DNA of 64,000 nt from Cerasicoccus frondis (GTDB lineage Bacteria; Verrucomicrobiota; Verrucomicrobiia; Opitutales; Cerasicoccaceae): assembly GCA_031296915.1 (NCBI GenBank), contig JAVDPC010000006.1, forward strand, positions 176,246 through 240,245. The letters are read 5' to 3'. A model generated the notes under the pieces. The model ran no database searches. It was not told the origin of the DNA and worked only from the letters and a program-made list of their open reading frames with translations. The translations under genes and the position numbers were made by a program. Every line of letters begins with the position of its first letter. Position 1 is the first letter of the stretch. This document shows positions 9,103-38,998 of the stretch, in pieces.

Positions 9103-9113
9103 TAAACGGTTAA
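9103..9113. promoter_or_regulatory. Putative LacI-type operator TAAACGGTTAA
   Basis: Perfect match to the palindrome TWAACNGTTWA that recurs in front of the glucan genes further right. It lies 94 bp upstream of the ATG at 9207, suggesting that this PEP-CTERM gene belongs to the same regulon. Confidence 0.5.
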
Positions 9114-9206
9114 GAATAAGTAAAACACCTGATCGTGTTTGTTCAAGTCTCAAATGTATGGGCGACGGAGTCCGATTCTCCGTCGCCCTCAATCAACCAA
9201 GTAAAA

Positions 9207-9983
9207 ATGTATAACAAGCTACATCAACATGTGCTGCTCCTTGCAGGGGTAAGCATCCTTACCACCTCGGCGCATGCAGTCCTCAATCCGATAAGCCTAC
9301 CAGGCGTGAATGAAAGCTACAGTTGGTCATTCACTAAAGCGAACTACAGCTCAGCTGACTATGGTTCGGCTGACGACTGGTCTGCGCTTTCCACCAGCAG
9401 CTCGGGCGACAGCAGCGTATTCATCGAGCCTTCCGCAGTTGGCAGCAATTATATGCCATCATCCGGAGCGCCGCTAAACGGATTGCTCGGCTATGGCGGT
9501 TCACTGATCCTTTCGGACACAAGCCCACTAACTGGATTGGAAACAATTGTTTTCCAGTTAGACTACGCAATGATCGGCGACGGCTTTGCCCCTGGCTCCT
9601 CAGCTTTAAATCCGGTGCTGAAAATTGGCGGCGTCCTCTTCGGCGTTGATGGCCAGGCTGACTATTCCTCAGCGGAAGATGTCAGTGATGCGCCCCACCC
9701 TCACGCCACTTTTGCTGACTTTGGCTATACCGCCAACGCTGGAACTTACGCATGGCAGTGGGATTTGAGCGATCTTGCCGGATACGACATCAGTTCCGGC
9801 TTCACCATTGAATGGAGCAGCCCCGGCGCTTTGGGAGGCATTAGCGATAATGCGCTCTTGAGCGGCGTCCAGTTGGACCAGGGCAATCAGTTTTCCCAGG
9901 TGGTCGTGCCCGAGCCATCCACCTACGCAACGCTGCTGGGCGCAGGCATCCTTGGCTTCGCCATATGGCGGCGTCGTAAGTAA
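9207..9983 (+). CDS. PEP-CTERM sorting-domain protein
   Basis: An exported 258-residue protein from the ATG at 9207; a GTG at 9135 is in frame but adds 24 residues ahead of an otherwise good signal peptide (MYNKLHQHVLLLAGVSILTTSAHA). The C-terminus VVPEPSTYATLLGAGILGFAIWRRRK is a textbook PEP-CTERM signal for exosortase. The central domain contains TYAWQWDLSDLAGYD (about 180-194), related to the WQWDL motif region of the 3870 and 7251 products. No enzyme motif was recognised. An operator-like palindrome lies upstream and a strong terminator follows. Its role is likely structural or glycan-associated at the cell surface. Confidence 0.85.
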   Translation: MYNKLHQHVLLLAGVSILTTSAHAVLNPISLPGVNESYSWSFTKANYSSADYGSADDWSALSTSSSGDSSVFIEPSAVGSNYMPSSGAPLNGLLGYGGSLILSDTSPLTGLETIVFQLDYAMIGDGFAPGSSALNPVLKIGGVLFGVDGQADYSSAEDVSDAPHPHATFADFGYTANAGTYAWQWDLSDLAGYDISSGFTIEWSSPGALGGISDNALLSGVQLDQGNQFSQVVVPEPSTYATLLGAGILGFAIWRRRK

Positions 9984-10008
9984 ACTGTAATTAACATCAA
10001 TATTTTCA

Positions 10009-10042
10009 CCCTCTTGTCCCCAAATTTGGGCAAGGGGGTTTT
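10009..10042 (+). terminator. Rho-independent terminator of the 9207 gene
   Basis: CCCTCTTG-TC-CCCAAA pairs with TTTGGG-CAAGGGGG (one G-U pair and an internal TC bulge) and is followed by TTTT. It closes the plus-strand secreted-protein block just before the AraC gene. Confidence 0.8.
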
Positions 10043-10052
10043 CCCATTAACC

Positions 10053-12163: not shown

Positions 12164-12164
12164 G

Positions 12165-16938: not shown

Positions 16939-19833
16939 TTAAGGTTTCAGGTAAGTCCCATCGGCGCCGATCTTGCCCGGTCCGTTTAGCACATAGACCT
17001 TCAGGTTGCCCTTGCCGTTAACGCTGGCGGTCAGGCTACCGTTACCCACGTTCTGCACATCGCCGGTGATGGCGTCGACATAGGTTCCATTCGGGATACC
17101 GCTAAACGTCGCGCCGCCGCTCACGGCGACCAAGGCAAAGCTGTCGACATTGGCGTCGGTGAAGCGTCGCTTAAAGGCCATGCCGCCGCTAACGCCGCTC
17201 GTGGAATACTGCCCCTTTTGCAATGCGGGCACGGCGCGACGAATTTGGTTCAATCGCCGAATGTGCTGCGCAAGGGGGTGGCTAAGGGTAGTCGCCATCG
17301 CGCCAGTCGCGTTGGAATACTCGCCAAAGTCCGATACGGACACGCTGCCTTCGATATGGTCGCCGAAATAGGCGCGGCCCGTTTGCGATAGCGGTGCGTT
17401 CGGGCCGACGTCGATCACCAAGCCCTTCTGGAATTCGATTTCGCTGCCGTAGTAAACACAGGGAATGCCGCGGAAGGTAAACATGAGGCTCAGGTTCTCT
17501 GCCCACACATCCTGAGGTTGGGCGAAGCGCTGGTTCTCCGGCGCGCCGTCGGGAGCGTAGTCGTGGGAGTCCACGTAAGTAACGTTGTAGGTGGCGTCGT
17601 TGTACCAGAGGTCACCACCGAGCGCGACGTTGAAGGCGTCGTAAGCATTCTGGAAATTCCAATGCATGGGGAAGTCGATCACCGCCATGCCCGAGTTCAG
17701 CGAGTGATCTGGCGCATGGTAGTCGTTGCCCACGAGCAGGTGGTTGTTGCTGGTCGGCTCGTTATCGACAGTGTCATTGTCCTGCCAATGCTGGAAGGTC
17801 GAGGCTTCGTTTTGCACACGCGTCCCCCACGGATATGCTTGCGTTTCCGCCCAGGTGTAAAACGGTGTGGAGATCGCCGGGATGTTGCTGTTCCAAACCT
17901 GACGATAGCGCGTGGCCACTTCGCCGAAGATAAAGAAATCATTGCCGCCGCGCGCCTTGAAGGCCGGGACAAAGGTATTGTTAAACGTGAGCCGAGAAAT
18001 GTGCTTCACCGTGTCGACCCGGAAGGCGTCCACGCCCATATCGATGTATTGGTTGTAGGCGTCGATCAGGTATTGCGCGGTCGTTGGGTTCTCGGTATTG
18101 AGGTCCACCGTGTCGCCCGCAATCTGCGCGGTCTGGACCGTGTAGCCTTCCCACTGGAGCGACTTCTCGTGGTGGTAGATGAAGTCAACGTCGTTGTAGT
18201 CTTCCTTCATCGCATCGATGCGCGCACCGTATTGAGCATTGGGCGTGAGCGTCAGGTAATTGGCGGGCAGGACGTTGTTCGGATCCGTAATGGTGACAGC
18301 GCTATCCGCGTCTTCGTTGAAGTCGATCACTTCAGCGCGATCAAACAACGGGTAGAGATTTTCCTCGCCGTAGTTGCAGGAGTGGTTGAGCACGATGTCC
18401 TGGATAACCTTGATGCCGCGAGCGTGAGCTTCGTCGATCAAAGTCTGGTAGGTCACGCCGGGCGACTCGTAGCGGAAGTCGACTTCGGAGTGATCGATGG
18501 CGTGGTAGCCGTGGTAGTCATAACCGCTGGCATTCTTCACGACCGGTGTGATCCAGATCGCGGAAAAGCCGAGCGCTTTAATGTAATCGAGCTTTTCAAT
18601 GAGGCCCTTGAAGTCGCCGCGCCAGGCAGGGTCGGAAGCCGGGTTCAGCGATCCATCCCAGCACTTCATGTTGTTCGACGAATCACCATCGAAGAAACGC
18701 GTGGTCATCAGGAAGTAAATTGTCTCCTCGCGAAAGTCGCCGCTCGTCATGCCCAGCTCGTTGACTTCGATGTTCTTCGTGACGACGTCAAAGACGATGC
18801 GGTAAGTCTTGTTGTCAGCGACTTGGTAATCTTGCGCCGGATAGCGCTCGGAGAAATCGCCATAGCGATCAATCAGGAAACGGGCGGGCGATTCCTCCCC
18901 ATTGAAGGTTGCCACGTATTCATAAAAGCCGTTGCCAATGTGGGTCATCGCAGCGGTGTTCCAGCCATTGGGCGTGCCGCGGAAATACCAAGGCTCGATG
19001 ACGCCGAGTTCTTCGGTGGTAATCTGCTTGGTGTCGCTGTTAAACGTGATGCGGTAAATGCGGTCGTCGGTCACCGCGTAATCGTTCTGTGCCGGATAGC
19101 GCTCCGAAAAATCGCCATGATGATCAATCAGGAATCGTGCGGGCGTTTCCTCACCATTGAAGGTCGCAATGTATTCGTAGGTGTTGGCGGATAGGCGCGT
19201 CATCGCGGCGGTATTCCAGCCGTTGGACGTGCCGCGAAAATACCACTGGTCGGCTGGCCAAACTTCCTCGACCGCGATGTCCTTCGTGGCTTGGTTAAAG
19301 GTAATGCGGTAGGTCTTGTTGTCCGTCACTTGATAATCCTGCGCCGGGTAGCGCTCTGAAAAATCTCCGTAATGATCGATGAGGAAACGCGCGGGCGATT
19401 CTTCGCCATTAAAGGTCGCGGTGTATTCAAACATGTCCCCGCCAAGGTGAGTCATCTGCGCGGTGTTCCAGCTATTGGACGTGCCGCGAAAATACCACAC
19501 GGCCGGATACTCGGTGACGGTGATGGCCTGCGTGCTGGTGTCGAAGCTGATCTTGTATGTCTTAAAATCGGTAACGACGTAGTCCTGGGCGGGATAACTT
19601 TCCGTCCAGTCATCGTAGCGGTCGATTTTAAAGCGAGCCGTTGTGTCCTCGCCGTTGAAGGTCTGAATCGTTTCGTAAGTCGTCGCGTCGACTTGTGTCA
19701 TCTGCGTGCTATCCCAGCCATTGGGAGTCCCACGGAAAAACCATTCTGCATGCGCGGACGGAATGATCGATAATACGCCAACGAGGCTAAGGAGCGTCGT
19801 GGCAAATTTCTTGAAGGCGGTTATGGGTATCAT
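16939..19833 (-). CDS. Secreted GH13 alpha-amylase with four N-terminal starch-binding-like repeats
   Basis: A 964-residue exported enzyme (signal peptide 1-29, cleavage after SAHA). Four tandem modules of about 80 residues occupy 31-110, 113-190, 197-276 and 282-360, each opening with W(F/Y)FRGT(P/S)NxW and containing ARFxIDxxxDxxExYPAQ; they resemble X25-type modules of amylases and pullulanases. The GH13 barrel begins near 368. Catalytic residues are visible: nucleophile D607 (FRVDTVKH), acid/base E638 (FIFGEV) and D758 (YVDSHD). DIVLNHSCNYG is conserved region I. Expected action is endo-hydrolysis of alpha-1,4 glucan outside the cell. It is followed by the MalK-type gene. Operator-like palindromes lie directly upstream. 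Confidence 0.93.
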   Translation of the reverse strand: MIPITAFKKFATTLLSLVGVLSIIPSAHAEWFFRGTPNGWDSTQMTQVDATTYETIQTFNGEDTTARFKIDRYDDWTESYPAQDYVVTDFKTYKISFDTSTQAITVTEYPAVWYFRGTSNSWNTAQMTHLGGDMFEYTATFNGEESPARFLIDHYGDFSERYPAQDYQVTDNKTYRITFNQATKDIAVEEVWPADQWYFRGTSNGWNTAAMTRLSANTYEYIATFNGEETPARFLIDHHGDFSERYPAQNDYAVTDDRIYRITFNSDTKQITTEELGVIEPWYFRGTPNGWNTAAMTHIGNGFYEYVATFNGEESPARFLIDRYGDFSERYPAQDYQVADNKTYRIVFDVVTKNIEVNELGMTSGDFREETIYFLMTTRFFDGDSSNNMKCWDGSLNPASDPAWRGDFKGLIEKLDYIKALGFSAIWITPVVKNASGYDYHGYHAIDHSEVDFRYESPGVTYQTLIDEAHARGIKVIQDIVLNHSCNYGEENLYPLFDRAEVIDFNEDADSAVTITDPNNVLPANYLTLTPNAQYGARIDAMKEDYNDVDFIYHHEKSLQWEGYTVQTAQIAGDTVDLNTENPTTAQYLIDAYNQYIDMGVDAFRVDTVKHISRLTFNNTFVPAFKARGGNDFFIFGEVATRYRQVWNSNIPAISTPFYTWAETQAYPWGTRVQNEASTFQHWQDNDTVDNEPTSNNHLLVGNDYHAPDHSLNSGMAVIDFPMHWNFQNAYDAFNVALGGDLWYNDATYNVTYVDSHDYAPDGAPENQRFAQPQDVWAENLSLMFTFRGIPCVYYGSEIEFQKGLVIDVGPNAPLSQTGRAYFGDHIEGSVSVSDFGEYSNATGAMATTLSHPLAQHIRRLNQIRRAVPALQKGQYSTSGVSGGMAFKRRFTDANVDSFALVAVSGGATFSGIPNGTYVDAITGDVQNVGNGSLTASVNGKGNLKVYVLNGPGKIGADGTYLKP

Positions 19834-19923: not shown

Positions 19924-19934
19924 TTTACAGTTTA
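19924..19934. promoter_or_regulatory. Putative LacI-type operator TTTACAGTTTA
   Basis: One mismatch to TWAACNGTTWA. It lies 91 bp upstream of the amylase start and between that gene and the terminator of the GH31 gene. Confidence 0.45.
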
Positions 19935-24175: not shown

Positions 24176-24553
24176 GGCGATACTTTTTGTGCGGTTTCGT
24201 TGATAAGAAGTTAATGGTTAGTTCTCAGACACGCGCACGAATCCAGCCTGGGGATACTCTGGCTATCACAGTTAGAAGGGGCATCGTTGGGGCGGGATTC
24301 GGGGAATAAGGATGAAGCATTTTCAAGCTTCGGCAGAAAACATACACGCTTGCACAGGGACATAAAGCGGTAAGCAGTTGGACAGTTTAACGGCTTCCCC
24401 AAACCGCACCGGTGGGCGCATGCATTCAACTGTCCAAAACAAAAGGCATTACCAAACGCGACTGCCCGCGCTATGCCCTTGAGCAGCCACGCGCGTATTT
24501 TCTCGGCCGTGGCTGACACCAAACCGCATCAATCCTCAACCCCGTTTATTCCC
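24176..24553. promoter_or_regulatory. Divergent promoter region of GH31 and pullulanase genes, with long-range inverted repeat
   Basis: This stretch separates two divergent secreted-enzyme genes. TTGGACAGTT at 24378-24387 is repeated as its exact reverse complement AACTGTCCAA at 24428-24437, forty bases apart. The first arm extends into TGGACAGTTTA (24379-24389), two mismatches from the TWAACNGTTWA operator. A repressor bound to both could control both promoters. No other element was recognised. Confidence 0.45.
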
Positions 24554-28299: not shown

Positions 28300-28343
28300 A
28301 TCGTTATCTTGGGATTAAGATGCTTATGGATCAGAGAAAATCG

Positions 28344-29039
28344 TCACTTGATTACCAGGCGGTTAAAGAAAAGCGCATTCGCGATGGCGCTGCCTTGATC
28401 TCCGGCATAGAGCCGGATACTGCGTGCACGGCCTTGATATTGACCACGGGCCAACACTTTGCGCCCCCCTGCTTCGGAGATTTGCCATTCACCGCCATCG
28501 CTCTGCTGCTTAAAGCTTAGCTTAAACAGAACCCGCGTCTTGGTATTCATTTCCAATGCGCCGTCGCCAGACTTTGCCTTGCTGACGGTATAGGGCTCTA
28601 CGCCGCCGTTAAAATTGAAAATCGTTTGGTCATGCTCATTGCGCATGTCCAAACCTTGATACCCGGCTTCGCCATTCACGATCAGTTCGATGGAAAACGT
28701 ATCGCCGGGGTTCAAACCAGCCGGATCAAAAAAGCGGTAAAGCTCCACAAACTGGCCATTGCGATCATGGAGCATAAACGCGAACCCGTCGGTATCAATA
28801 TTGTCTCCGCCCTTTCTCAGAGCAGATGTCTCGATGCCAATGTTCTCGCCAAATCGAACGGTCGACTCATCAAACACCCAGCCACCCAAACCGTCTTCCT
28901 CAGTGGAGCCATCTTCCAGGTTTTCCCAACCATCAGCATAGGCGGGCTGCGAAGCGTCATCGTAGTCCGCGCCAAGCAACGCAAGCGGCGCCAGCGTTAG
29001 CCATCCATACGGGATCACATGCATGCCAAATAGCTTCAT
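28344..29039 (-). CDS. Secreted paralogue of the 27535 protein lacking a PEP-CTERM tail
   Basis: About 231 residues from the ATG at 29039 (MKLFGMHVIPYGWLTLAPLALLGA is a signal-like N-terminus). An in-frame start at 29123 would overlap the upstream stop and prepend a non-signal segment, so it is rejected. The domain aligns along its length with the 27535 product: YADGWENLEDGSTEEDGLGG, YRFFDPAGLNPGDTFSIEL, GLDMRNEHDQTIFNFNGG and the final LFFNRLVIK. It ends where the paralogue's PEP-CTERM begins, so it is probably free or periplasmic. A perfect operator palindrome lies 67 bp upstream. Function unknown; duplicated glucan-binding domain is the favoured inference. Confidence 0.75.
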   Translation of the reverse strand: MKLFGMHVIPYGWLTLAPLALLGADYDDASQPAYADGWENLEDGSTEEDGLGGWVFDESTVRFGENIGIETSALRKGGDNIDTDGFAFMLHDRNGQFVELYRFFDPAGLNPGDTFSIELIVNGEAGYQGLDMRNEHDQTIFNFNGGVEPYTVSKAKSGDGALEMNTKTRVLFKLSFKQQSDGGEWQISEAGGRKVLARGQYQGRARSIRLYAGDQGSAIANALFFNRLVIK

Positions 29040-29105
29040 GGGTGGGGGAAATTTATAATAAATATAGTCTGTATAAGGTAGCGCGTTAGACCAGCACCAG
29101 CGCAT

Positions 29106-29116
29106 TAAACAGTTAA
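29106..29116. promoter_or_regulatory. Putative LacI-type operator TAAACAGTTAA
   Basis: Perfect match to TWAACNGTTWA, three bases beyond the stop of the GH66-like gene and 67 bp upstream of the 29039 start. It suggests a regulated internal promoter for the paralogue pair. Confidence 0.6.
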
Positions 29117-29119
29117 CGC

Positions 29120-31309
29120 TCATTCGCTGTAGTTAATGATGATTGTGCCGTGAACCACCAGTTCGGGCACCGTGACCGTGATGACCTGATCCTTGAGCTC
29201 GAAGTTTATTGGCTGAGGCAACTCATACTCCTGGCGATCCGGACTGGCGAAAAATACCGCCTTTGGCGATATGCTTTCCGGTAACGGAACGTTAACGACA
29301 ACATCCCGACGCAGCCCGACCGTAGCCGGTGCATCGTCCCACTCCGGCTGACCGCTAAAGTTGAGCAACTGCACACAAATGGCATTGCGATCCGGCGCAT
29401 GGAAGCTGCGGGTGATGCCGTCGGCTAGCGCAACGCGCAGATCAAGATTGGAGACATTGCCTCCGTGCGTGTATTCGTAGAGCATGGCGTCGTGCGCATA
29501 GTAGCGCTTGAGCAGCTCGGCATGATCCTCGGGAAGCACTTGGTGGTCGGGGTAGTAAAGAGAGTTCAGGGCGTGCATTTCGTCAGCCGCTTCATCCGGC
29601 TCGCCTGCAACCATGAGCGATCCACCACCCGTCATCGTAGCGCCAAGGACGCGCGCCAAAGTCCACTTCGGCCAAGATGAATGCGCGGGCTCCATGTCCG
29701 CCGGATAGAGCTTCAGAATGACGCGCTGCCCACTCGCGCCATGGTGAAAATAGCAGATGTCCACGAGATCGCTCAAGCGCTTGGCCTGCCAGCGCCAGAT
29801 CTCCAGAAAAAGAAAATCCGTCACCTCATACATATTCTGCACGCCAAACTCATTCACGCTGTTGAACGACACCAATCCATGTGGTTTCACTGAGTGTGTC
29901 ATCGTGGCAACGTCCGCGACAAAGCCCTGCAGTACCTCGGCCAGCGAGGCCCCGTCATGCGGGCTGCCATCGGCGTAGAAACGCGCATCAGCCGGATCGC
30001 CATAGGTATCGATTTCAAAGCCATCAAAGGCGACTAGATCGCCCGGATTATCTTCCAGCGTTTGCCGCAGCTCCTCCATAATGTAGGAGCGCCACTGAGA
30101 ACCTTCCGAAACATTCATGAGCCAAAACCACTTGGGCTTTCCACGGTTTTCTGCCTCCGCCTCGGTCATGATCTCGCCATTAAATACTTTGGGCTTACCT
30201 TCAATGTCGGTCATAGGATCAGTGATCTGGTCGTACACGCTTTTTGAAGCAGCATAGGCCGATATGTAAGCCAGCGCGAGAATGCCGCGCTCCTGACAAG
30301 CCTCGATCTTCGCCTTCACATCCAACCCATTGATCGCCACGCCAAATGGCTCAAAGCTATAGCGCGCCTCGCTCGGAGCATAGTCGCCGTGCGCCGGAAA
30401 ATAGTCATAGAATTCAACGGCGTTTACATAGAGATCAGCCAGCATCGCGGCTTTCGCAGCATAGTCTTGCTGCCCCTCAGGATACGTGGCAAAGAAGCCA
30501 TAACGCAGGTCATCGGCAGGACTATCCGTAACCGATAAAATGATCGTATCTGTAGCAAGCACTTCACCTGAACGTTTCAACTCAACGTTCACCACATAAC
30601 CGCCGGTCCAGGAAACTTCGGGAAGATTAATCACATTGCGTCCGTGCCGAGCGCTACGGCTATCGCTAAAAAGTGAGCGACCAAGTGGCGTCGAAATCTG
30701 AAACGCGAGTTCCAAGCCAGGCTCTGCTGAATCGACATCGACGTATAAACGATTGCTGACCGATGGCTCGACCCACGCCCGCTCCAGTGCCAGCGACAAG
30801 GACGCCTCGTTCACTGTTTGCACCAATGCTTGATTGCTCTTCATCGGCTTCAACTCACTTAGAAGCAACGCAGAGTTGTCCCCTGCCCGCTCCTCAACAT
30901 GCGGGTCATTTGCCCAAAGCATTTGTCCATTGGTTGTCTCGACCACGTAGCGGTATTGGAAGTTTGGTTCCGGACGATCAATGAAAGCATACCAAACGCC
31001 CGATGGGTGACTTTGCATCGCAAAGCGTGGGTTATTCACGACTCCGTTATCGTTGTTTGCCCAGTTATTGAATGAGCCAGCGAGGTAAATATTTTTCACC
31101 TCAAGGTCAGCGGCCGGCTCGAAGCGAAAGAGCACGCCTGACTCCTCATACAGCGGCGGCCCGGCTTGCTCGAGTGCTTTATCAAGATCCGGATTAACAA
31201 CCGATAAATCCTCGCCACTTGCAGATATGCAGGTAGCCAGCAGGAACACGGTGTTTAGGACGAGACGGGTTAACATGAGAGGGCAACGAACAATAAATGC
31301 TAGTAACAT
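29120..31309 (-). CDS. Secreted GH66-like dextranase/cyclodextran-type enzyme with N-terminal CBM48-like domain
   Basis: A 729-residue exported protein; the ATG at 31309 and the ATG at 31276 (MLTRLVLNTVFLLATCISASG) are both possible, the second giving a cleaner signal peptide. Residues about 45-145 form a glycogen-binding E-set domain (IYLAGSFNNWANNDNG, FQYRYVVET). The remainder resembles GH66: D429 in FDGFEIDTYGD fits the nucleophile and E503 in DFLFLEIWRW the acid/base, with a spacing similar to characterised dextranases. GH66 enzymes act on alpha-1,6-glucans, so dextran or isomalto-oligosaccharide cleavage or cyclisation is expected. It lies 20 bp after the (alpha/alpha)6 enzyme gene in one operon. 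The exact activity is not certain. Confidence 0.8.
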   Translation of the reverse strand: MLLAFIVRCPLMLTRLVLNTVFLLATCISASGEDLSVVNPDLDKALEQAGPPLYEESGVLFRFEPAADLEVKNIYLAGSFNNWANNDNGVVNNPRFAMQSHPSGVWYAFIDRPEPNFQYRYVVETTNGQMLWANDPHVEERAGDNSALLLSELKPMKSNQALVQTVNEASLSLALERAWVEPSVSNRLYVDVDSAEPGLELAFQISTPLGRSLFSDSRSARHGRNVINLPEVSWTGGYVVNVELKRSGEVLATDTIILSVTDSPADDLRYGFFATYPEGQQDYAAKAAMLADLYVNAVEFYDYFPAHGDYAPSEARYSFEPFGVAINGLDVKAKIEACQERGILALAYISAYAASKSVYDQITDPMTDIEGKPKVFNGEIMTEAEAENRGKPKWFWLMNVSEGSQWRSYIMEELRQTLEDNPGDLVAFDGFEIDTYGDPADARFYADGSPHDGASLAEVLQGFVADVATMTHSVKPHGLVSFNSVNEFGVQNMYEVTDFLFLEIWRWQAKRLSDLVDICYFHHGASGQRVILKLYPADMEPAHSSWPKWTLARVLGATMTGGGSLMVAGEPDEAADEMHALNSLYYPDHQVLPEDHAELLKRYYAHDAMLYEYTHGGNVSNLDLRVALADGITRSFHAPDRNAICVQLLNFSGQPEWDDAPATVGLRRDVVVNVPLPESISPKAVFFASPDRQEYELPQPINFELKDQVITVTVPELVVHGTIIINYSE

Positions 31310-31329: not shown

Positions 31330-33828
31330 TTATAAAGAGGCAATATAGCCAAGGCGCAGCTCGGCGATGTTCACGAAATTGTAGCGATCGCCACCACCAC
31401 CAGCCCGGGCGGTATAGGCCGCATTACTGGCGAGATAACTCATATTACGACAGTAGGCATCCTCACTGATACGAATCGCATATCGTCTCCCTGCCTCAAG
31501 CGATGCGACGATTCGGTTTGAAAGCAGGAACCGCTTCCAGTCACTCGTTTGCGGCATGATGAAGTAGCCTGCTCCGCAGCATACGTTCAGGTCAGAGAGA
31601 ACTTCTCCCCGCTTGACCGCGCAGGTAATGCCGGTGTTGATCGGCCCGGAACCGTTGGCGTAATTCACTTGAACCGCATATCTCCCGGACTGGCAAACAG
31701 TGACATCGCGTGCGACAAGCTCATGGGAACTCAACCCCCAATTTTCAAAGTGACCATCAACCAAGTGCCCACCAACGCATGACATCTCATCGGCGGGGAT
31801 AGACTGCACTTGCCATGGCTCCTGGCACTGTTGGCCACGCGTCGGGTGCGAGGTCAAACCATGCTGCCGACAGCGCGCAACCAAGTGATAGACGTAGCGT
31901 TGATGCGGGTAGTTTCCGGACCGCAAGTCGAGCCAAGCATTCGCATCCTTAACCGTCGCGTGAAGCGCACCGTTTCGGTAAATATCGACCAAGACCGAAT
32001 CGGAATCGGGATGCAGAAAAGACAGTTGTAAAAGCCCGCCTTGCAAGCTCACGCCACCCGATTCCTCATCCCACTCCGGCGGTTTTGGCGCGTAGATAGC
32101 CTCCTTACATTGCACGTCAACGAGCGGCAAAGCACTGCATGTTTGCGTTGACTCAGCTGCTTCCAAATACACGTCCCATTCATTGCGGGGCTGAAGCGCA
32201 TCTTGGCTCACGACTTGCCCGGATACTTCGTCACCATTCAGCAAGACACGCTTAACGGTCGCCGTTTCCGACAAAAAGCAATCGATTTCTGGCAAATGCA
32301 ATGTGACCGAATGAGTCGCGTTTAAAAACGAGAAATTCAGCAGGCGTAGGCACTTCACATCGGCGAATAAGTTAACTCTCATCCACCGTGTAACAAACGG
32401 TTCGACACGCATGCCAAAATCCATCGCATGCAGCCCAAACAGCACATTCTGAACTAAAGAAATGTAACCCGCAACGGACCACAGCTGCCGGCGGGAATTA
32501 ATCGTCGGTCCCTCTTGCGTGTCGGTCTTGATAAACGCCTGGCCCGAGACGAAGTCGAAATTTTCCATATTGGAAAGGTTTGCAGCGGAGAGCTTCATCA
32601 GCGATTGCAGGCCAGCGTCAACCACCGGCGCATGCTCGACCTTTACCGCTGCCTTGATCCAGTATGCAGTCACGAATGGCCAGATGCCTTGGTTGTGGTA
32701 AATCGGTGTTTGGCGCTCCTGCGGCCAAACGACAGGTGGTCCGTGCAGTCCTGTTGGGTAGCGATTCAGAATGTCGCGCGCCTGTTCTTCAGTTGCGATG
32801 TCGAACAGAATGGCCAAGCAGTTTCCCAGCAAATCATAGCGCGGCAGCGAGAGGTCTACATCCCCGAACTCCGACAGCAAATACGTGCGAAAAAGACCCG
32901 CCTCCGCGTCATAGAAATGATGCTGAATAGCCTTGCGTAAATCTTTCGCCCAGGACCCATAGCGCTCGCTTTCGGCAGTGTGCCCCAGGGAGTCTGCGAA
33001 GTTTGCCGCGAGCTCCAGCAGGAATACATTCAGCGCATTCACGGACAACGCCTTGGACATCGCAATCGCCAAGGTATCGTTCTCCGTCCACTGCGGATAC
33101 GTCTGTTCTCGCCAATCAAGAAACGACTGCTCGCCCCGATACAGACCGGTAACGGCATCGAAAACCAACACGCGATCCTGCTCGATGGTATCTCGCAAAT
33201 ACGGGTAAACCTCTGCCACGAAATCTGCTCGCTGAGAAGACGTCAGATGCTTCATCACTTCATCGGCCCCGAGCGCCCAAACCACGCGATCCGTCGAAAC
33301 CGGATAACTTCCGCCAGAGCCAGTATCCTGAACAATCTGCCTACTAAAACCATCACGAACGCTTTCCTTGAGTGCTGAAATTTTGAACTTCAGCGAACGC
33401 AATGCGCGATCTGTATTCAGCGGAGCGAGTCCCAAATGCAAGGCGTAGGCCAAGTCACGCGTCCAAACATAATTCCACTTTTCACCCGTTTTGTAGACAC
33501 TGGTTTCTATCGGCTGACCGTGGGCATAGTCCGCATCTTCGATACTGGATACGGCGTTCAAACGTGCCTCCTCAATAGCTAGCGCATACAGGCTATCGAA
33601 GAGCGTGTTGCCAGAACGGCAACGTGCTTGGCCACTCTGCTCAGCGACTTCCAAACGCCCCCCGGGCGGCAGATCATCGCGCAGGTCGATGTCGGTCTCG
33701 AACTCATAGACACGGGCACCGTCAGCTGCCTCGGAGACGATCGTGACCTGTTGGTATCGATCATTATTCGCCTTAGAATTTGCGCTTTGCTTTGAGCGGC
33801 TAAGCGGGATGAACGAAGGGGATTCCAC
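31330..33828 (-). CDS. Cytoplasmic (alpha/alpha)6-barrel glucosidase (GH15/amylo-alpha-1,6-glucosidase-like)
   Basis: An 832-residue protein without a signal peptide, hence probably cytoplasmic. Residues about 75-500 look like an (alpha/alpha)6 toroid of the GH15/GH63/GH133 type: WNYVWTRDLAYALHLGLAP (118-136) is the characteristic Trp-Thr-Arg-Asp substrate loop, followed by GSGGSYPVSTDR, YPQWTENDTLAIAMSKAL and IYHNQGIWPFVTAYW. The C-terminal 300 residues are beta-rich with a CBM-like segment (about 690-830). It is expected to cleave short alpha-glucans after import. The gene is divergent from lacI, with two operator-like palindromes between. The precise family needs a profile search to settle. 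Confidence 0.72.
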   Translation of the reverse strand: MESPSFIPLSRSKQSANSKANNDRYQQVTIVSEAADGARVYEFETDIDLRDDLPPGGRLEVAEQSGQARCRSGNTLFDSLYALAIEEARLNAVSSIEDADYAHGQPIETSVYKTGEKWNYVWTRDLAYALHLGLAPLNTDRALRSLKFKISALKESVRDGFSRQIVQDTGSGGSYPVSTDRVVWALGADEVMKHLTSSQRADFVAEVYPYLRDTIEQDRVLVFDAVTGLYRGEQSFLDWREQTYPQWTENDTLAIAMSKALSVNALNVFLLELAANFADSLGHTAESERYGSWAKDLRKAIQHHFYDAEAGLFRTYLLSEFGDVDLSLPRYDLLGNCLAILFDIATEEQARDILNRYPTGLHGPPVVWPQERQTPIYHNQGIWPFVTAYWIKAAVKVEHAPVVDAGLQSLMKLSAANLSNMENFDFVSGQAFIKTDTQEGPTINSRRQLWSVAGYISLVQNVLFGLHAMDFGMRVEPFVTRWMRVNLFADVKCLRLLNFSFLNATHSVTLHLPEIDCFLSETATVKRVLLNGDEVSGQVVSQDALQPRNEWDVYLEAAESTQTCSALPLVDVQCKEAIYAPKPPEWDEESGGVSLQGGLLQLSFLHPDSDSVLVDIYRNGALHATVKDANAWLDLRSGNYPHQRYVYHLVARCRQHGLTSHPTRGQQCQEPWQVQSIPADEMSCVGGHLVDGHFENWGLSSHELVARDVTVCQSGRYAVQVNYANGSGPINTGITCAVKRGEVLSDLNVCCGAGYFIMPQTSDWKRFLLSNRIVASLEAGRRYAIRISEDAYCRNMSYLASNAAYTARAGGGGDRYNFVNIAELRLGYIASL

Positions 33829-33893: not shown

Positions 33894-33904
33894 TGAACTG
33901 TTAA
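33894..33904. promoter_or_regulatory. Putative LacI-type operator TGAACTGTTAA
   Basis: One mismatch to TWAACNGTTWA, 66 bp upstream of the 33828 start. It pairs with the perfect site at 33922; centres are 28 bp apart. Confidence 0.5.
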
Positions 33905-33921
33905 ATCAAAACGTGAGCCCT

Positions 33922-33932
33922 TAAACAGTTAA
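33922..33932. promoter_or_regulatory. Putative LacI-type operator TAAACAGTTAA, autoregulatory
   Basis: Perfect match to TWAACNGTTWA, 45 bp upstream of the lacI-type ATG at 33977. A TTGACA hexamer, possibly a -35 element, follows at 33940-33945, but no convincing -10 box was found at normal spacing. Confidence 0.6.
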
Positions 33933-33976
33933 CTTGCGGTTGACATTTTGGCGTGCTTCCAAACAAAATATAAGGC

Positions 33977-34999
33977 ATGACCCCAACGATTCGTAGTGTA
34001 GCAAAGCTCGCTGGCGTGTCGCCCGCCACCGTCTCCCTCGCCTTGAGAAACGACCCCCGGATCAGCTCCCAGGTGCGCGAGCGGGTGCAAGGCATTGCCG
34101 CCAAAGAAGGCTACCGCCCCAACCCCATTGTCTCGCGGCTAATAGCCCAAGTGCGGGCGAGCAAGACCACCAATTTCAAAAGCACGCTGGCGCTGGTGAA
34201 TACCGCCGAGCATTTGAAAGATGTCGAGGAGCGCACCGTTCGCTGCTGGATCGATGCCAGCGTTGAGCGCGCCACTGAGCAAGGCTACAGCGTGGATCGT
34301 TTTGTATTGGCCAAGGAGCCACTGCGCCCGGAGCGCTTAATGAAAGTGCTCGATTCGCGCGGCATAGAGGGGCTCATCATCACCGGACCTTTTCAGGACA
34401 ACACCATCGATGCCAAATACGATTTGCTCTGGCAGAGATATGCAGCGGTTGTGCTTGGCGAACGGCCGTTTCAACCCTCGCTCTCGTGCGTGATCAACGA
34501 TCAATTCAACACCGTTCGCCAAGCAATGATTCAAGTCCGAAGGCTCGGCTACAGCAAGCCAGCCTTGTGCGTCCACCCGTATGTCGACCGCATTCTTGAG
34601 CAGCGCCTGAGTGGCGGTTTTCTTGTCGAGCAGCGTCAGTTGCCCAAGCGCAATTGGATTGCGCCCTACGACTATGATGAGGCGGGCCAAGAACCGTTTC
34701 TAAAATGGTATCAGAAGCATCAACCGGATGTCATCATCACACTGCATCCTGAAATAAAAGGCTGGCTAGAATCCATCAATGTCAGCGCGCCGGATCACAT
34801 CGGACTGGTGCATCTGGACCACGAGCCATCTCTCAAAGACTGGGCCGGCATGAACCAAAATCACGAACACGTTGGCAAGGCCGCGGTCGACATGCTCATT
34901 GGCAAATTGAATCGCAATGAGCTGCAACTCCCGCCATTCCCAAAGTGCGTGACCATCATGAGTGAATGGACGCCGGGGCCCAGTGTTCGTAAACAATAG
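33977..34999 (+). CDS. LacI family transcriptional regulator
   Basis: A 340-residue repressor. The N-terminal helix-turn-helix and hinge are classic: TIRSVAKLAGVSPATVSLAL at residues 3-22, then VRERVQGIAAKEGYRPNP ahead of the hinge helix. Residues 60-335 form the periplasmic-binding-protein-like effector domain. The gene is divergent from the glucosidase and is surrounded by alpha-glucan enzymes and an ABC importer. Two palindromes matching a motif found before other locus genes sit in its promoter, so it most likely controls the locus and itself. The inducer is inferred to be a malto- or isomalto-oligosaccharide. It lies 17 bp tail-to-tail with the pseudopilin gene. Confidence 0.93.
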   Translation: MTPTIRSVAKLAGVSPATVSLALRNDPRISSQVRERVQGIAAKEGYRPNPIVSRLIAQVRASKTTNFKSTLALVNTAEHLKDVEERTVRCWIDASVERATEQGYSVDRFVLAKEPLRPERLMKVLDSRGIEGLIITGPFQDNTIDAKYDLLWQRYAAVVLGERPFQPSLSCVINDQFNTVRQAMIQVRRLGYSKPALCVHPYVDRILEQRLSGGFLVEQRQLPKRNWIAPYDYDEAGQEPFLKWYQKHQPDVIITLHPEIKGWLESINVSAPDHIGLVHLDHEPSLKDWAGMNQNHEHVGKAAVDMLIGKLNRNELQLPPFPKCVTIMSEWTPGPSVRKQ

Positions 35000-35016: not shown

Positions 35017-35742
35017 TCAATACTGGCGATTCGGCGGCACCAGGTCACCCAAGTCGCCGTTGCCGTAGATATCCTCGTTGGCCAATAGCTCCACGTGCGC
35101 ATCGACAAAGCCAATGTGGGATTCCCCGTTATACCGTGTCGTTGGCCGGTCAATAAACCACACGCAGAATGAATCATTGGGCGTGTCTTCTTCATAAACT
35201 AAAGCCTTGGACTCCGGGCTTTCGATGTAATTCATCTGTACAGTTCCCAGCGCCTTTTCAAAGCCGCTCGGTGAAGAAGCTCCGGGCGCAAGCTCACCTT
35301 TATTAATCAAGAAGTTGAAAGAGTAGCTAAAATTCCGCCCGGCCTCACCAGCCTCCGTCAAGCCGTCATCGCTGGGCGCCAGGATAATTTGCTCCGCTGC
35401 GGCTGCGCTCTCCATATAGCGGGCCAGAACGGTGTTCTCCAATTCCGCCACGCCGTTGCGCGTGACAAAAAAGTAATCAGAAGGATCGTCCAGCCCCACG
35501 TTGTCCGCCGCCACTTTCGGCAAATGCCCCTGGTTGTCATTAGCATACAGTTGAGCCGCCAAACATATCTGGCGAATCTGGGTGCCCGACTTCGTGGTAT
35601 TCGCACGATCCATGGCCTTGCCGACTGCCACAAATATCAGCGCCCCCAGTATCGCAATGACGGAGATTACCGTCAACAGTTCAACAAGGGTGAATCCAGC
35701 TCTGGGGTATGGGGGGGTGTCGCGATTCATTTTGAATGACAA
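35017..35742 (-). CDS. Type II secretion pseudopilin-like protein
   Basis: A 241-residue protein with a class III signal: leader ending PYPRAG, then FTLVELLTVISVIAILGALI, so cleavage after Gly16 gives Phe+1 and Glu+5. The C-terminal part carries IGFVDAHVELLAN, the degenerate end of the H-X9-DG prepilin family. An alternative start is ATG at 35730. It lies 66 bp downstream of the permease gene with a perfect operator palindrome in between, so it belongs to the importer and LacI region genetically. A connection between such pseudopilin-like proteins and polysaccharide use in Verrucomicrobia is plausible but unproven. Confidence 0.87.
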   Translation of the reverse strand: MSFKMNRDTPPYPRAGFTLVELLTVISVIAILGALIFVAVGKAMDRANTTKSGTQIRQICLAAQLYANDNQGHLPKVAADNVGLDDPSDYFFVTRNGVAELENTVLARYMESAAAAEQIILAPSDDGLTEAGEAGRNFSYSFNFLINKGELAPGASSPSGFEKALGTVQMNYIESPESKALVYEEDTPNDSFCVWFIDRPTTRYNGESHIGFVDAHVELLANEDIYGNGDLGDLVPPNRQY

Positions 35743-35782
35743 TGTTGTATGATTTTTAGTTAAAAGTCGAGTAAATCAGAGC

Positions 35783-35793
35783 TAAACAGTTAA
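35783..35793. promoter_or_regulatory. Putative LacI-type operator TAAACAGTTAA
   Basis: Perfect match to TWAACNGTTWA, 40 bp upstream of the pseudopilin start and 15 bp past the permease stop. It points to a regulated promoter dedicated to the pseudopilin gene. Confidence 0.6.
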
Positions 35794-35808: not shown

Positions 35809-36651
35809 TTAGCCCTTACCGCCGGTGGTCGCGATGCCTTCCACAAAGTATCGCTGCGTGAAGAAGAACAGCACTACCACCGGCAGCACCACCAGCGTCG
35901 ATGCCGCCATGAGGTAATGCCAATCCGTGCCGCCGCCCTTGCTCTGGTAAGCTTGCAGCCCAAGGGCCAGCGTGAAGTCGGCTTGATCGGTTAAGTAGAT
36001 CAGCGGCCCGAGAAAGTCATTCCAGGTCGCCATAAATTGAAACAGCGCCACGACGATCAAGGCCGACTTGGCCAGTGGCAGAATCACCAGCCAGAACACT
36101 TGCAGCTCGCTGGCGCCGTCGATCTTCGCCGCCTCCTCCAAGTCCTTGGGCAAGGTCAGGAAAAACTGACGAAGCAAAAACACATTGAACGCACCTGCAA
36201 GAAAACTCGGAAACCAAAGGGGCTTGTAGGTGCCGATCCAACCAAACTCACGAAACAGCGTGTAGAGCGGCACCATGATTACCGGAAACGGAATCATCAT
36301 CGTCGCCAACACGAGGACGAATATTTTATCGCGACCCCGCCATTCGATTCGCGAAAAACCATAGGCGGCCAATGAGCTGCTCAGTACCGTGCCGATTACC
36401 GTCATGACACAAAGAAAAGTCGTGTTCGCCGTGTAGCGCCAAAACATCTTCATCTCATCAATGGCCTGCGGGTAGTTCTCCCACTGCACCGTCGACGGCA
36501 ACCATCGCGGCGGCATACTCAGTGTTTCGTTCAGCGGCTTCAGCGAGGTCGAAACCATCCAGGCAAACGGCGCAATAAAAACGAACGCCCCGATCAACAA
36601 GATCACGTAAATGCAAATGCGCTGAACCAAACTAGCGGATTGAGAAGTCAT
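35809..36651 (-). CDS. MalG-type sugar ABC transporter permease
   Basis: An inner-membrane permease of 280 residues with six predicted membrane segments. The EAA loop EEAAKIDGASELQVFWLVILP is the docking site for the MalK-type ATPase. The ATG at 36651 overlaps the stop of the upstream permease as ATGA; an in-frame upstream start at 36744 would add 31 charged residues inside the neighbouring gene and is rejected. It completes the importer with the 36648 and 37562 genes. CUT1-family importers take up oligosaccharides, here probably malto- or isomalto-oligosaccharides. Confidence 0.92.
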   Translation of the reverse strand: MTSQSASLVQRICIYVILLIGAFVFIAPFAWMVSTSLKPLNETLSMPPRWLPSTVQWENYPQAIDEMKMFWRYTANTTFLCVMTVIGTVLSSSLAAYGFSRIEWRGRDKIFVLVLATMMIPFPVIMVPLYTLFREFGWIGTYKPLWFPSFLAGAFNVFLLRQFFLTLPKDLEEAAKIDGASELQVFWLVILPLAKSALIVVALFQFMATWNDFLGPLIYLTDQADFTLALGLQAYQSKGGGTDWHYLMAASTLVVLPVVVLFFFTQRYFVEGIATTGGKG

Positions 36652-37565
36652 TTGGCGGCGTAGTGAACATGGCGCTCGAAGACGTGCGTCGCGAGCAACG
36701 TGAGCGCCAGAATGATGATAAACAGGATTAGCGCGACGGCGCATGCATAGCCCATGCTCCAGGCCTGAAAGCCTTTATTGAAGACATAGGTGGCAGCAAA
36801 CAGCAGCGAACGCCCGGGGCCTTCACCACCATTGGTCATCACGTAAGGCACCGCGAATACTTGAAAGGAACCAATCAGCGACATGATGCCGTTAAAGTAA
36901 ATCACCGGCGATATGATTGGCAGCGTCACATGGAACGTTTTCTGCCAAAAGCCGCAGCCATCCAGCTCCGCCGCCTCGTAGAGTGAGCGCGGCACATCCT
37001 GCAAACCGGCGAGGAATATCACCACGGCGTTGCCCACACCCCACATGCTCGCCAACACGAGTCCCAGCTTCGCGTAGGCCGGATTCACGAGCCAATTGGG
37101 TGGTTGCAGCGAGGTTCCCAACACATAGTTAATCGCGTCGCACACCGGGGCCAGTGCTTGGTTTATCAGACCGATTTCGCCATTGAGCATCCACTGCCAG
37201 AGCACGCCTAAACACACCATGGGCACCAGCGACGGCAGGAAATAAATGGTCCGAAAAATCTTTTTCCCCGGCAGATCGAAATTCAACAGCACGGCGAGAA
37301 ACAAAGCCGAAACGAGGTTAATCGGGATCGATAATGCGGCGAAATAGAAGGTGTTCCAAATCGACTTCCAGAAAAGTTCGTCCACCGCTAATCGCTCATA
37401 GTTGTCGAAGCCGATGAACACCGGCTCAGCCAGCACGGAGTAATCGGTAAGCGACAGATAAGCCGAGCTGACTAGCGGATAGAGCGTCAGCAGGATGAAG
37501 CCGGCAATCCAGGGACTGATAAAACACAGCCCGACGATCATGTTGCGCTTTTCAGTTTTCGTCAT
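36648..37565 (-). CDS. MalF-type sugar ABC transporter permease
   Basis: A permease of 305 residues from the ATG at 37565, which overlaps the upstream stop as ATGA; the ATG four codons earlier (37577) is less likely. Six hydrophobic segments start at residues about 10, 70, 105, 155, 200 and 260. The EAA-type loop YEAAELDGCGFWQKTFHVTLP is present. It pairs with the MalG-type permease in the membrane channel. Stop/start overlaps on both sides show a tightly coupled operon in the order binding protein, MalF, MalG. Confidence 0.92.
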   Translation of the reverse strand: MTKTEKRNMIVGLCFISPWIAGFILLTLYPLVSSAYLSLTDYSVLAEPVFIGFDNYERLAVDELFWKSIWNTFYFAALSIPINLVSALFLAVLLNFDLPGKKIFRTIYFLPSLVPMVCLGVLWQWMLNGEIGLINQALAPVCDAINYVLGTSLQPPNWLVNPAYAKLGLVLASMWGVGNAVVIFLAGLQDVPRSLYEAAELDGCGFWQKTFHVTLPIISPVIYFNGIMSLIGSFQVFAVPYVMTNGGEGPGRSLLFAATYVFNKGFQAWSMGYACAVALILFIIILALTLLATHVFERHVHYAAK

Positions 37566-38914
37566 CGCGCATCCCATTCTTTTAGCCGCGCCTCGCGCAC
37601 CTTGAGCCAGCTTTCATGTTTGCGCGCAAAGAGATCTTGCTGCCGCCGCTGCACTTCCTCGGCGGCCTGCATTGCGGTCTTTTCGTCGCGCATGATTTCA
37701 TCAATCGCGTTGACCATATCATTGCTGAATTCGTTAAAGGTCACCATCTGCGGGCGCATGCGGGCGTGCTCATTCTCCGCCAACTCACGATAAGTATGGA
37801 TGTGTGGATTTGGATGCCGCTCATAGAATTCGTCACTCACTTCCCGTAGTGGGCTGAACTTCAGCTGCGCCAAGCTCAGCGCCTCCAACTGCTCCGGCTT
37901 CTGCAGCCACTGCATGAACGCAAAAGCTTCCGCAGGATGCGCCGCGCCTTGCGGGATTACCAGGCAATCACTCTCCACCAGGCTTGCGCCATAGTCTTCC
38001 TCTCGCCAAGTGGGAAACGGCGCCACGCCCCATTCGAAATCATCCGGGGCAAAATTATTAATGAAGTTAAACATCCAAGGCCCCTGCAACACCATCGCAA
38101 TGCGCTCGCGAAAGAATGGATTTTCCGGCGAGGCAAAGACACCGCTCAGTTGACGAAACGCCATCAGCGATTCCGAGCCATAACGCTCCGGATAGCTCTC
38201 GATCCATTCCAGCGCAGCCATGTTCGCCTCGCTATCGGCGGTCACTTCATCTTCGCCATTCCAGATATCGCCGCCAAACCAGATGCTCCAATTGGCGCTC
38301 CACCACCCCGGCTCAATCGGCATGTGCCCCATCACTTGAATGCGCCCGGCGTCGCTGTAGCGCGTCAACTGATCATTATAAGCCTCCAGTTCTGCCATGG
38401 TGCGCGGCGGGCGCTCGGGGTCCAAGCCAACTTCGCGGAAAAGACGTTTATTCCAGTGCAGGGCAATCGTTCCCGGCGTTGTCGGCAGCCCCCACACGCG
38501 ATCATACACAACGACCTGTTGCCAAATCGAGGGCAGGTAATCATCGGCATTCAGTGAAGACCCGGCCAACATATTATCGAGCGGCATCAAGGCGCCGTTG
38601 GATGCAAACACGGGTAGATTCGCCGTCCACAAGCCGGCAAGGTCCGGCGGATTGCCACCCGCGGTGGCCAACATCAGCTTGCGGTCGATATTGCTGACCG
38701 AGAGGAACTTTACGAAGACTTCGTCCTGCGAGGCATTATACTCGTTAACGAGTTTCGCCATCGCATCGCGCTCGAAGCCGGTCCACTTCTCCCAGTACTC
38801 AATCTCGATGCGCCCATCCGCACGCTCCACCTCTCGCTGGTTACCGGCAAACAGCAAGTAACCCACAAGACAGACAGAAAGGAGCGAAATGATCAGAAAC
38901 TTAGGAGATAACAT
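37562..38914 (-). CDS. Sugar ABC transporter substrate-binding protein
   Basis: A 450-residue extracytoplasmic binding protein. The N-terminus (MLSPKFLIISLLSVCLVGYLL) is a hydrophobic signal or anchor without an obvious lipobox. The fold is family 1 solute-binding: IEIEYWEKWTGFERDAMAKL, then PPDLAGLWTANLPVFASNGAL and the WNKRLFREVGLDPERPP signature. Ligand specificity cannot be read directly; its location among alpha-glucan enzymes and a LacI regulator suggests gluco-oligosaccharides. It is the first gene of the importer operon, with an operator-like site 74 bp upstream. Confidence 0.9.
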   Translation of the reverse strand: MLSPKFLIISLLSVCLVGYLLFAGNQREVERADGRIEIEYWEKWTGFERDAMAKLVNEYNASQDEVFVKFLSVSNIDRKLMLATAGGNPPDLAGLWTANLPVFASNGALMPLDNMLAGSSLNADDYLPSIWQQVVVYDRVWGLPTTPGTIALHWNKRLFREVGLDPERPPRTMAELEAYNDQLTRYSDAGRIQVMGHMPIEPGWWSANWSIWFGGDIWNGEDEVTADSEANMAALEWIESYPERYGSESLMAFRQLSGVFASPENPFFRERIAMVLQGPWMFNFINNFAPDDFEWGVAPFPTWREEDYGASLVESDCLVIPQGAAHPAEAFAFMQWLQKPEQLEALSLAQLKFSPLREVSDEFYERHPNPHIHTYRELAENEHARMRPQMVTFNEFSNDMVNAIDEIMRDEKTAMQAAEEVQRRQQDLFARKHESWLKVREARLKEWDAR

Positions 38915-38987
38915 TAGCTAAGGAGGGGTTGAAGCACGTGACCTTATCTAAGCCTCAGCAACTATCTCGGAGCGATGCGTCTCTGGT

Positions 38988-38998
38988 TAATCAGTTAA
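38988..38998. promoter_or_regulatory. Putative LacI-type operator TAATCAGTTAA
   Basis: One mismatch to TWAACNGTTWA, 74 bp upstream of the importer operon start. The rest of the 299-bp gap up to 39213 shows no other recognised element. Confidence 0.45.

What the first reader, a model, noticed from the sequence alone, without database searches (positions are those of the whole stretch)
9103..38998. Candidate LacI regulon defined by a new palindrome TWAACNGTTWA
Seen directly: TAAAC(A/G)GTTAA occurs at 9103, 29106, 33922 and 35783, with one-mismatch versions at 19924, 33894 and 38988 and two-mismatch versions at 19852 and 24379. All lie in intergenic regions, nearly all 40-95 bp upstream of alpha-glucan genes, and two flank the lacI-type promoter. 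LacI proteins bind palindromes of this kind, and paired sites at their own promoter indicate autoregulation. The inference is that the regulator at 33977 controls amylase-malK, GH31/pullulanase, the secreted paralogue pair, the glucosidase-GH66 operon, the importer, a pseudopilin and a distant PEP-CTERM gene.
Basis: partly seen in the sequence, partly recalled or inferred. Interest (0 to 1): 0.75.

Follow-up and report, generated by a model that had tools for sequence, protein, structure and literature searches.

The report
Local LacI-type regulon for alpha-glucan use
A sugar-type regulator in a Cerasicoccus-like bacterium very probably binds a short mirror-image DNA word in front of its own gene and of the neighbouring genes for using starch-like glucans, and the word's fixed place relative to the promoters suggests that it may switch several of them on rather than off.

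Summary
In detail: four exact TWAACNGTTWA sites in the window against 0.04 expected. Orthologues of the LacI-type protein (33977-34999) occur in 8 of 273 genomes of the order; all 8 have the site upstream of lacI (G008 with one mismatch), including a genome of another family with different alpha-glucan targets. A matrix built only from lacI promoters finds sites in 24 of 30 other cluster promoters (malK and GH31 left out), but in 2 of 240 upstream regions outside the cluster, one being 9103. The regulon looks local: of 10 exact sites elsewhere in the genome, 8 lie in ORFs. The PEP-CTERM gene (9103) and the 19852 site lack support from conservation. New: in four target promoter types the site lies at one distance (centre 18 bp before an inferred weak -35) and orientation; the distance recurs at two promoters in G089 and two in an unlinked C. 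arenae locus. That resembles LacI-family activation (CcpA, AraQ/MalR1). A new member of a known kind, with an uncommon odd-length operator; binding and activation are inferred, not shown.

The parts
33977..34999 (+). LacI-family regulator (340 aa; HTH plus divergent periplasmic-binding-like effector domain)
   Evidence: Pfam LacI E 4.3e-14; profile of 8 orthologues matches LacI-family structures, among them CcpA, PurR and LacI; orthologues in 8 of 273 order genomes, itself included
33922..33932 (.). Main operator TAAACAGTTAA shared by the divergent lacI and glucosidase-like promoters
   Evidence: Present upstream of lacI in 8 of 8 orthologue genomes, one of them (G008) with one mismatch
33940..33945 (+). 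lacI -35 box TTGACA, 13 bp after the operator centre
   Evidence: Read: TTGACA at +13 in W, G002, G001, G006, G009, TTGACT in G004; TTGACA at +23 in G008; not identifiable in G089
33904..33909 (-). -35-like TTGATT of the glucosidase-GH66 operon, 18 bp after the operator centre
   Evidence: TNG at +18 conserved; the -35 role is inferred
33894..33904 (.). Second site TGAACTGTTAA, 28 bp from the main one; its core touches the -35 and covers part of the spacer of the glucosidase-like promoter
   Evidence: One mismatch in W and G002, two in G001; no second site within two mismatches in G006, G008, G009; G004 has two others farther upstream
31330..33828 (-). Target: GDE_C/MGH1-like glucosidase, first gene before GH66
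29120..31309 (-). Target: GH66 (dextranase-like)
   Evidence: Pfam GH66 E 4.4e-38; NCBIfam endo-dextranase match below its cut-off
29106..29116 (.). Operator TTAACTGTTTA (minus strand) of the secreted paralogue pair
   Evidence: Site in 7 of 7 family genomes with the regulator, 72-246 bp before the pair or, where only the PEP-CTERM paralogue was found (G006, G009, G008, G004), before that gene
29088..29093 (-). -35-like TGGTCT of the secreted pair
27535..29039 (-). Target: secreted paralogue pair (28344-29039 and PEP-CTERM 27535-28299), 39% identical
35783..35793 (.). Operator TTAACTGTTTA (minus strand) of the pseudopilin gene
   Evidence: Found in 6 of 7 genomes, absent in G008
35765..35770 (-). 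-35-like TCGACT of the pseudopilin gene
35017..35742 (-). Target: pseudopilin (N-methylation motif)
38988..38998 (.). Operator TTAACTGATTA (minus strand) of malE
   Evidence: TTAACTGATTA in 5 of the 6 genomes in which malE was found, TTAACTGATAA in G008
38970..38975 (-). -35-like TCGCTC of malE
35809..38914 (-). Target: ABC importer (binding protein and two permeases)
19924..19934 (.). Weaker operator of the GH13 amylase gene (followed by malK)
   Evidence: Same place (95-102 bp) in 5 of 5 genomes with this gene in the stretches examined, scores 9.7-13.9; does not follow the TNG rule
16939..19833 (-). Target: GH13 amylase; malK-like ATPase 15768-16913 follows
24379..24389 (.). Weaker operator in the divergent pullulanase/GH31 gap
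   Evidence: Sites in 5 of 5 genomes with pulA in the stretches examined, score 10.0-15.0, place variable; does not follow the TNG rule
24426..24436 (.). Possible second pulA site TCAACTGTCCA (three mismatches)
   Evidence: Read; second sites scoring 10.0-11.4 in the same gap of G001, G006, G009
9103..9113 (.). Exact site before a PEP-CTERM gene; membership unproven
   Evidence: no conservation

Best explanation
The LacI-type protein at 33977 is a local regulator of alpha-glucan breakdown and uptake. It binds, as a dimer, the odd palindrome TWAACNGTTWA (C and G around one central base) at its own promoter, at the glucosidase-GH66 operon, the secreted pair, the pseudopilin, malEFG, and more weakly at the amylase and pullulanase/GH31 promoters. 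At the four strong target promoters it sits upstream of, and does not overlap, an inferred weak sigma-70-like promoter: operator centre 18 bp before the -35 hexamer (about -53), in one orientation. The most likely mechanism is that it helps RNA polymerase onto these promoters (activation), under control of an alpha-gluco-oligosaccharide, while its own promoter, with a near-consensus -35 only 13 bp away (half a turn off), is probably repressed or set by it. Shown by sequence: conserved site, LacI-site co-occurrence, site-promoter spacing. Inferred: binding, direction of regulation, effector. The confidence given is for the regulon; activation, given the regulon, I put at about 0.6.
For: Exact site count. 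lacI-promoter site in 8 of 8 orthologue genomes, one with a mismatch, down to 53% protein identity and another family, where the other genes next to the sites are a CBM53/CBM25 starch-binding protein followed by a pseudopilin, and a GH13 amylase. Matrix trained on lacI promoters only: 26 of 40 other cluster promoters at score 13 or more, 36 of 40 at 9.5 or more (the pulA/GH31 gap counts twice there and two malK hits look like terminators); without malK and GH31, 24 of 30 and 29 of 30. 999 permuted matrices average 0.69 of 40 at score 13; the only one to reach 26 differs just by exchanging A and T at the W position. Controls: 2 of 240 upstream regions outside the cluster; 36 sites in 135 kb of cluster, 29 without the lacI training sites, against 6 in 329 kb outside. 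Spacing: T at +18 in 18 of 18 and G at +20 in 17 of 18 target promoters; mean -10 score (my weights) highest at the predicted place of 37 shifts, 2.75, with 2.73 one base before; TNG at +18 at both G089 targets and at both divergent promoters of an unlinked C. arenae glucan locus. Composite element in 7 of 8 genomes with the orthologue, 26 of 265 without. Published precedent: LacI-family activation from upstream of -35 (PMC3463425, PMC6882875, PMC2329647, passages).
Against: No binding or expression data. Counts over whole genomes mostly do not exceed reversed-pattern controls (20 against 32, G000: 41 against 119; 16 against 11; 36 against 36), so the case rests on location and conservation. 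The promoters and genomes are related, so column counts are not independent; the genomes with the orthologue are larger than many without it, which one search does not correct. The C. arenae amylase site has A in the centre, so by that mark its orientation is the opposite; two other one-mismatch sites in that 30-kb stretch do not follow the rule. The second site (33894) overlaps the glucosidase-like promoter, where binding should repress. The amylase and pullulanase sites of the window do not follow the TNG rule; G008 lacks the pseudopilin site; malK has no credible site. Several target -10 boxes are poor.
Confidence: 0.85

Rival explanations
1. Same regulon, but the protein is an ordinary LacI-type repressor that is released by an alpha-gluco-oligosaccharide; from -53 it blocks polymerase contacts or an unknown activator, as GalR does at gal (recalled).
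For: Repression is the usual mode of the family (passages of PMC3463425 and PMC2329647); the lev operon is a case of CcpA repressing from upstream of a promoter (passage); the second site 33894 overlaps the glucosidase-like promoter.
Against: The main sites do not overlap the inferred core promoters of the targets, spacing and orientation are fixed, and the target -35 boxes are poor (TNG only) while lacI's is near consensus.
Confidence: 0.3
2. The conserved site is bound by a different transcription factor, and the LacI gene is merely one of its targets.
For: Nothing here shows binding; the genome has 20 LacI-type matches to this protein at E 1e-30 or better, itself included, and an AraC-type gene lies in the window.
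Against: In another family (G089) the site goes with the LacI orthologue although the other targets differ, and among the seven proteins of that 11.6-kb contig that I scanned only LacI is a recognised regulator, one having no family; site and orthologue co-occur; 72% of LacI regulators in PMC4052901 are autoregulated (passage).
Confidence: 0.08
3. Chance similarity of AT-rich intergenic words.
For: At two mismatches the count is near chance, and genome totals do not exceed the controls.
Against: Exact sites 4 against 0.04; sites in the same promoters at 50-98% protein identity.
Confidence: 0.02

Closest known systems
LacI-family local sugar regulons as reconstructed in RegPrecise (PMC4052901)
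   Same: One regulator next to its targets, own promoter included, palindromic sites mostly 30-140 bp upstream of start codons, sugar uptake and breakdown genes (outline, abstract, passages and section 9 seen).
   Different: 1251 of 1303 regulators there have even palindromes, mostly with central CG; here the palindrome is odd (C-N-G) and its conserved core is about 11-13 bp. The word beginning Verrucomicrob does not occur in that paper's text.
EbgR-like LacI regulators with odd operators (PMC2329647)
   Same: Odd palindrome with a single central base.
   Different: Those lack the hinge leucine and have a single central C or G (passages); here the leucine is kept (L55, invariant in 8 of 8) and the central base is mostly A/T, between C and G.
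CcpA and AraQ/MalR1 as activators (PMC3463425, PMC6882875)
   Same: LacI-family protein with its site upstream of the -35 box; AraQ/MalR1 also act on maltodextrin uptake and amylopullulanase genes (passages).
   Different: CcpA is global and works with HPr-Ser-P; AraQ/MalR1 sites are not at one fixed distance (15-16 or 33-35 bp from -35); here one distance and one orientation in four promoter types of a local regulon.

Membership tests
LacI/GalR transcription factor family | N-terminal LacI helix-turn-helix | tested here: met
   Pfam PF00356 above cut-off in P0001 and matched in 8 of 8 orthologues
LacI/GalR transcription factor family | Periplasmic-binding-protein-like effector domain | tested here: met
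   Weak but consistent: Peripla_BP_3 in 7 of 8 members, best E 2.5e-05, at a permissive limit of 1, below Pfam's cut-off in the one shown; profile aligns to PurR and other chains over most of their length
LacI/GalR transcription factor family | Palindromic site at the own promoter | tested here: met
   8 of 8 orthologues; binding itself not tested
LacI/GalR transcription factor family | Sugar effector changes DNA binding | not testable with these tools
   Needs protein and ligands
Canonical CG-centred (CcpA-like) operator class | Even palindrome with central CG | tested here: not met
   C-N-G in 8 of 8 lacI promoters and in 36 of 36 collected sites, which were picked by matching the motif
EbgR-like odd-operator subclass | Hinge leucine missing | tested here: not met
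   L55 invariant in 8 of 8; its equivalence to the hinge leucine is my hand alignment from memory of LacI and CcpA
LacI-type activator (CcpA/AraQ-like mode) | Site upstream of -35 at a helix-phased distance | tested here: met
   Centre 18 bp before the inferred -35 in four promoter types; not in the amylase and pullulanase promoters; no start site is mapped
LacI-type activator (CcpA/AraQ-like mode) | Expression needs the regulator | not testable with these tools
   Needs a deletion strain or in vitro transcription

The most novel reading that the evidence does not exclude
A dedicated LacI-family activator: a local alpha-glucan regulator of this bacterial order that switches on uptake, surface and hydrolase genes from one fixed place (about -53) and orientation on weak promoters, reads an odd C-N-G operator although it keeps the hinge leucine, and uses the same operator half a turn out of phase to hold down its own strong promoter.
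Probability: 0.45. Interest if true: 0.6.

Novelty: new member of a known kind. Interest (0 to 1): 0.42.

Why it matters
It gives an operator word, a target list and a promoter geometry for a transcription factor in a bacterial group where I saw no described LacI operator (capped listings of searches; RegPrecise itself could not be searched). The ten family genomes hold 7 to 36 LacI-type matches each, so one solved case is a start for the others. If activation is right, it is a natural series for asking how a LacI-type dimer touches RNA polymerase. The pseudopilin in the regulon, with a comparable gene arrangement in another family, points to a possible surface role in glucan use.

Tried and rejected
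Class-wide rule for odd C-N-G operators: upstream regions of 83 other LacI genes of the family show no excess of perfect odd C-N-G palindromes (8 against 5.7 expected, p 0.24) or of the seven other centre types. Not supported by that test, which would miss imperfect sites.

malK as a direct target: the two hits (G006, G009) lie in what looks like a terminator hairpin followed by T's (by eye); W, G002 and G008 have none. Dropped, though the two are inside the 36 of 40 and the 36 sites.

9103/PEP-CTERM: homologues in other family genomes are only 33-40% identical and none of the five upstream regions has a site within one mismatch. Left as possible. G004 beta-galactosidase site (1102284): no TNG, taken as background. 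Off-locus composite hits in G004 and G008: one overlaps the end of a dnaK-like gene (by eye), the other lies between genes without an evident glucan role; taken as background. C. arenae sites at L107 2449 and 8240 lack the TNG and were not pursued.

Viral collection search for the regulator: no relative.

Controls that went wrong: the 283 control regions still held lacI/glucosidase promoters (11 of them with the exact site; 13 of 283 reached score 13); one search repeats the control without the cluster. In one search, 1 of 999 permuted matrices reached the observed value; one search shows that it differs only by exchanging A and T at the W position.

Rows left out: G002 and G009 in the column counts (near duplicates of W and G006), G002 in the training set of the matrix; amylase, pullulanase and malK promoters were not part of the +18/+20 count. 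Reversed-control counts were read only for the eight genomes with the orthologue (4 against 17).

Orthology was judged by identity and, in the family, synteny; no tree was made. No structure was predicted.

Full report
WHAT WAS CHECKED. Four exact TWAACNGTTWA sites stand against 0.04 expected in shuffles and nine at up to one mismatch against 2.55. At two mismatches the count (56 against 43.6) is close to chance. In the whole 5.8-Mb genome TAAACNGTTWA has 14 distinct places, four of them in the window; the strand count (20) is below that of the reversed pattern (32). Of the ten places outside the window, eight are inside ORFs (simple ORF calls), one looks by eye like a tRNA gene, one is intergenic. 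The motif is thus not a genome-wide signal; if real it is local.

THE REGULATOR AND ITS RELATIVES. The protein at 33977-34999 is a LacI-family regulator. Orthologues other than itself are 53-98% identical; with it they number 7 of 10 genomes of the family and 8 of 273 of the order. Site centre to probable lacI start is 49-59 bp in the family and about 72 bp in G089. Seven of the eight match TWAACNGTTWA exactly, G008 with one mismatch.

THE CLUSTER. Synteny is clear: malEFG, pseudopilin, lacI, glucosidase-like gene, GH66, secreted pair or one paralogue, pullulanase, GH31 with CBM25 domains, GH13 amylase and malK in the larger clusters (malK not found in the stretch of G001); G008 and G004 hold parts of it in the stretches examined. 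A matrix trained only on lacI-promoter sites was scanned over 40 other cluster promoters: 26 have a site at score 13 or more and 36 at 9.5 or more; permuted matrices average 0.69 and 2.0. The four without are malK in W, G002 and G008, and the pseudopilin of G008. Pullulanase and GH31 share one gap and are counted twice there; without GH31 and malK the figures are 24 of 30 and 29 of 30, and 19 of 20 for the secreted pair, pseudopilin and malE. Outside the cluster 2 of 240 upstream regions reach 13, one of them 9103. There are 36 sites at 13 or more in 135,210 bp of cluster (29 without the training sites) against 6 in 328,720 bp outside. An earlier rough count gave 32 in 47 kb called non-coding against 12 in 428 kb called coding; several of those 12 lie in ORF calls that overlie the conserved promoters.

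A SECOND FAMILY. The contig of G089 (another family, lacI 53% identical) has two exact sites in 11.6 kb: between lacI and a GH13 amylase with CBM48, and before a protein with CBM53/CBM25 starch-binding modules that is followed by a pseudopilin. The hydrolase and binding-protein targets are not the window's genes, but serve the same kind of purpose. Of seven proteins scanned on the contig only LacI is a recognised regulator; one has no family. This is the strongest single argument that site and LacI belong together.

PROMOTER GEOMETRY. Aligned on the operator, the promoters of the glucosidase-like gene, secreted pair, pseudopilin and malE carry the site as TTAACTG....A on the coding strand in 17 of 18 sequences (TCAACTG in the G008 glucosidase-like promoter), with T at +18 in 18 of 18 and G at +20 in 17 of 18 from the centre. 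Taking +18 as the start of a -35 hexamer, the mean -10 score of 20 promoters (these and two of G089; my weights, spacers 16-18 bp) is highest at that position among 37 shifts (2.75; 2.73 one base before). The operator centre is then about 53 bp before the start of transcription, outside the core promoter, and the -35 is poor. lacI in contrast has TTGACA (TTGACT in G004) at +13 in six genomes and at +23 in G008, half a turn off the targets. Two further checks agree: both G089 targets have TCG at +18, and in C. arenae an unlinked locus with a second glucosidase-like gene (51% identical) and a secreted amylase has two one-mismatch sites, each followed on its gene's strand by TTG or TGG at +18; the amylase one has A in the centre, unlike the rest, and two other one-mismatch sites in that stretch do not fit. 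The amylase and pullulanase sites of the main cluster do not follow the rule. Composite pattern with TNG: 17 hits in 7 of 8 genomes with the orthologue (reversed control 4), 16 of them at the locus; 28 hits in 26 of 265 genomes without it (not corrected for genome size). With a wider word the eight genomes gave 16 hits against 11 for the control, 14 at the locus; with one mismatch 36 against 36, 22 at the locus. The location is what is special.

HOW IT PROBABLY WORKS. LacI-family proteins can activate when their site lies upstream of -35: CcpA at ackA, pta and ilvB (passages of PMC3463425), CcpA of L. lactis at centres -21 and -31 from the -35 sequence (passage of PMC2329647), and, as proposed there, AraQ/MalR1 15-16 or 33-35 bp before it (passages of PMC6882875). 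A centre 18 bp before the first base of the -35 (20.5 before its middle) is close to the -21 class. Hence my preferred reading: activator of the glucan genes, with autoregulation of lacI. Against pure activation: the second site at 33894 overlaps the glucosidase-like promoter, and repression from upstream is also known in the family. I put activation at about 0.6 given that the regulon is real.

COMPARISON. 1251 of 1303 LacI regulators in PMC4052901 have even palindromes (section read); here it is odd, as in EbgR-like proteins, which however lack the hinge leucine (passages) that is kept here (L55; equivalence by hand). A class-wide rule for odd sites was not found. Papers: of PMC4052901 outline, abstract, passages and one section; of the other three passages only. 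In the capped listings of searches I saw nothing on a Verrucomicrobia LacI operator.

Noticed in passing
19859-19875: Inverted repeat TTGGAA-AACGC-TTCCAA upstream of the amylase gene, partly kept in C. arenae; could be the site of another regulator.
   Followed up: no
35017-35742; L106 4697-5413: A pseudopilin gene belongs to the regulon, and in another family a DUF1559 pseudopilin follows a starch-binding protein that has the same kind of site; a surface role in glucan use is possible.
   Followed up: partly
9160-9188: GC-rich inverted repeat GGGCGACGGAG/CTCCGTCGCCC between the 9103 site and the likely start of the PEP-CTERM gene.
   Followed up: no
39214-42523: A NusG-like gene and a WecG/TagA-type glycosyltransferase gene lie in a run of same-strand genes next to the glucan cluster, perhaps a polysaccharide-making locus.
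   Followed up: no
L107 8626-14311 (G001:C8): C. arenae has a second, unlinked alpha-glucan locus (glucosidase-like gene 51% identical, secreted amylase, PEP-CTERM paralogue) with two composite sites.
   Followed up: yes
G006 C12, C34, C52, C63: Four near-identical copies of TTAACTATTTAGCCATTCGGTYTTTG, perhaps part of a repeated element.
   Followed up: no
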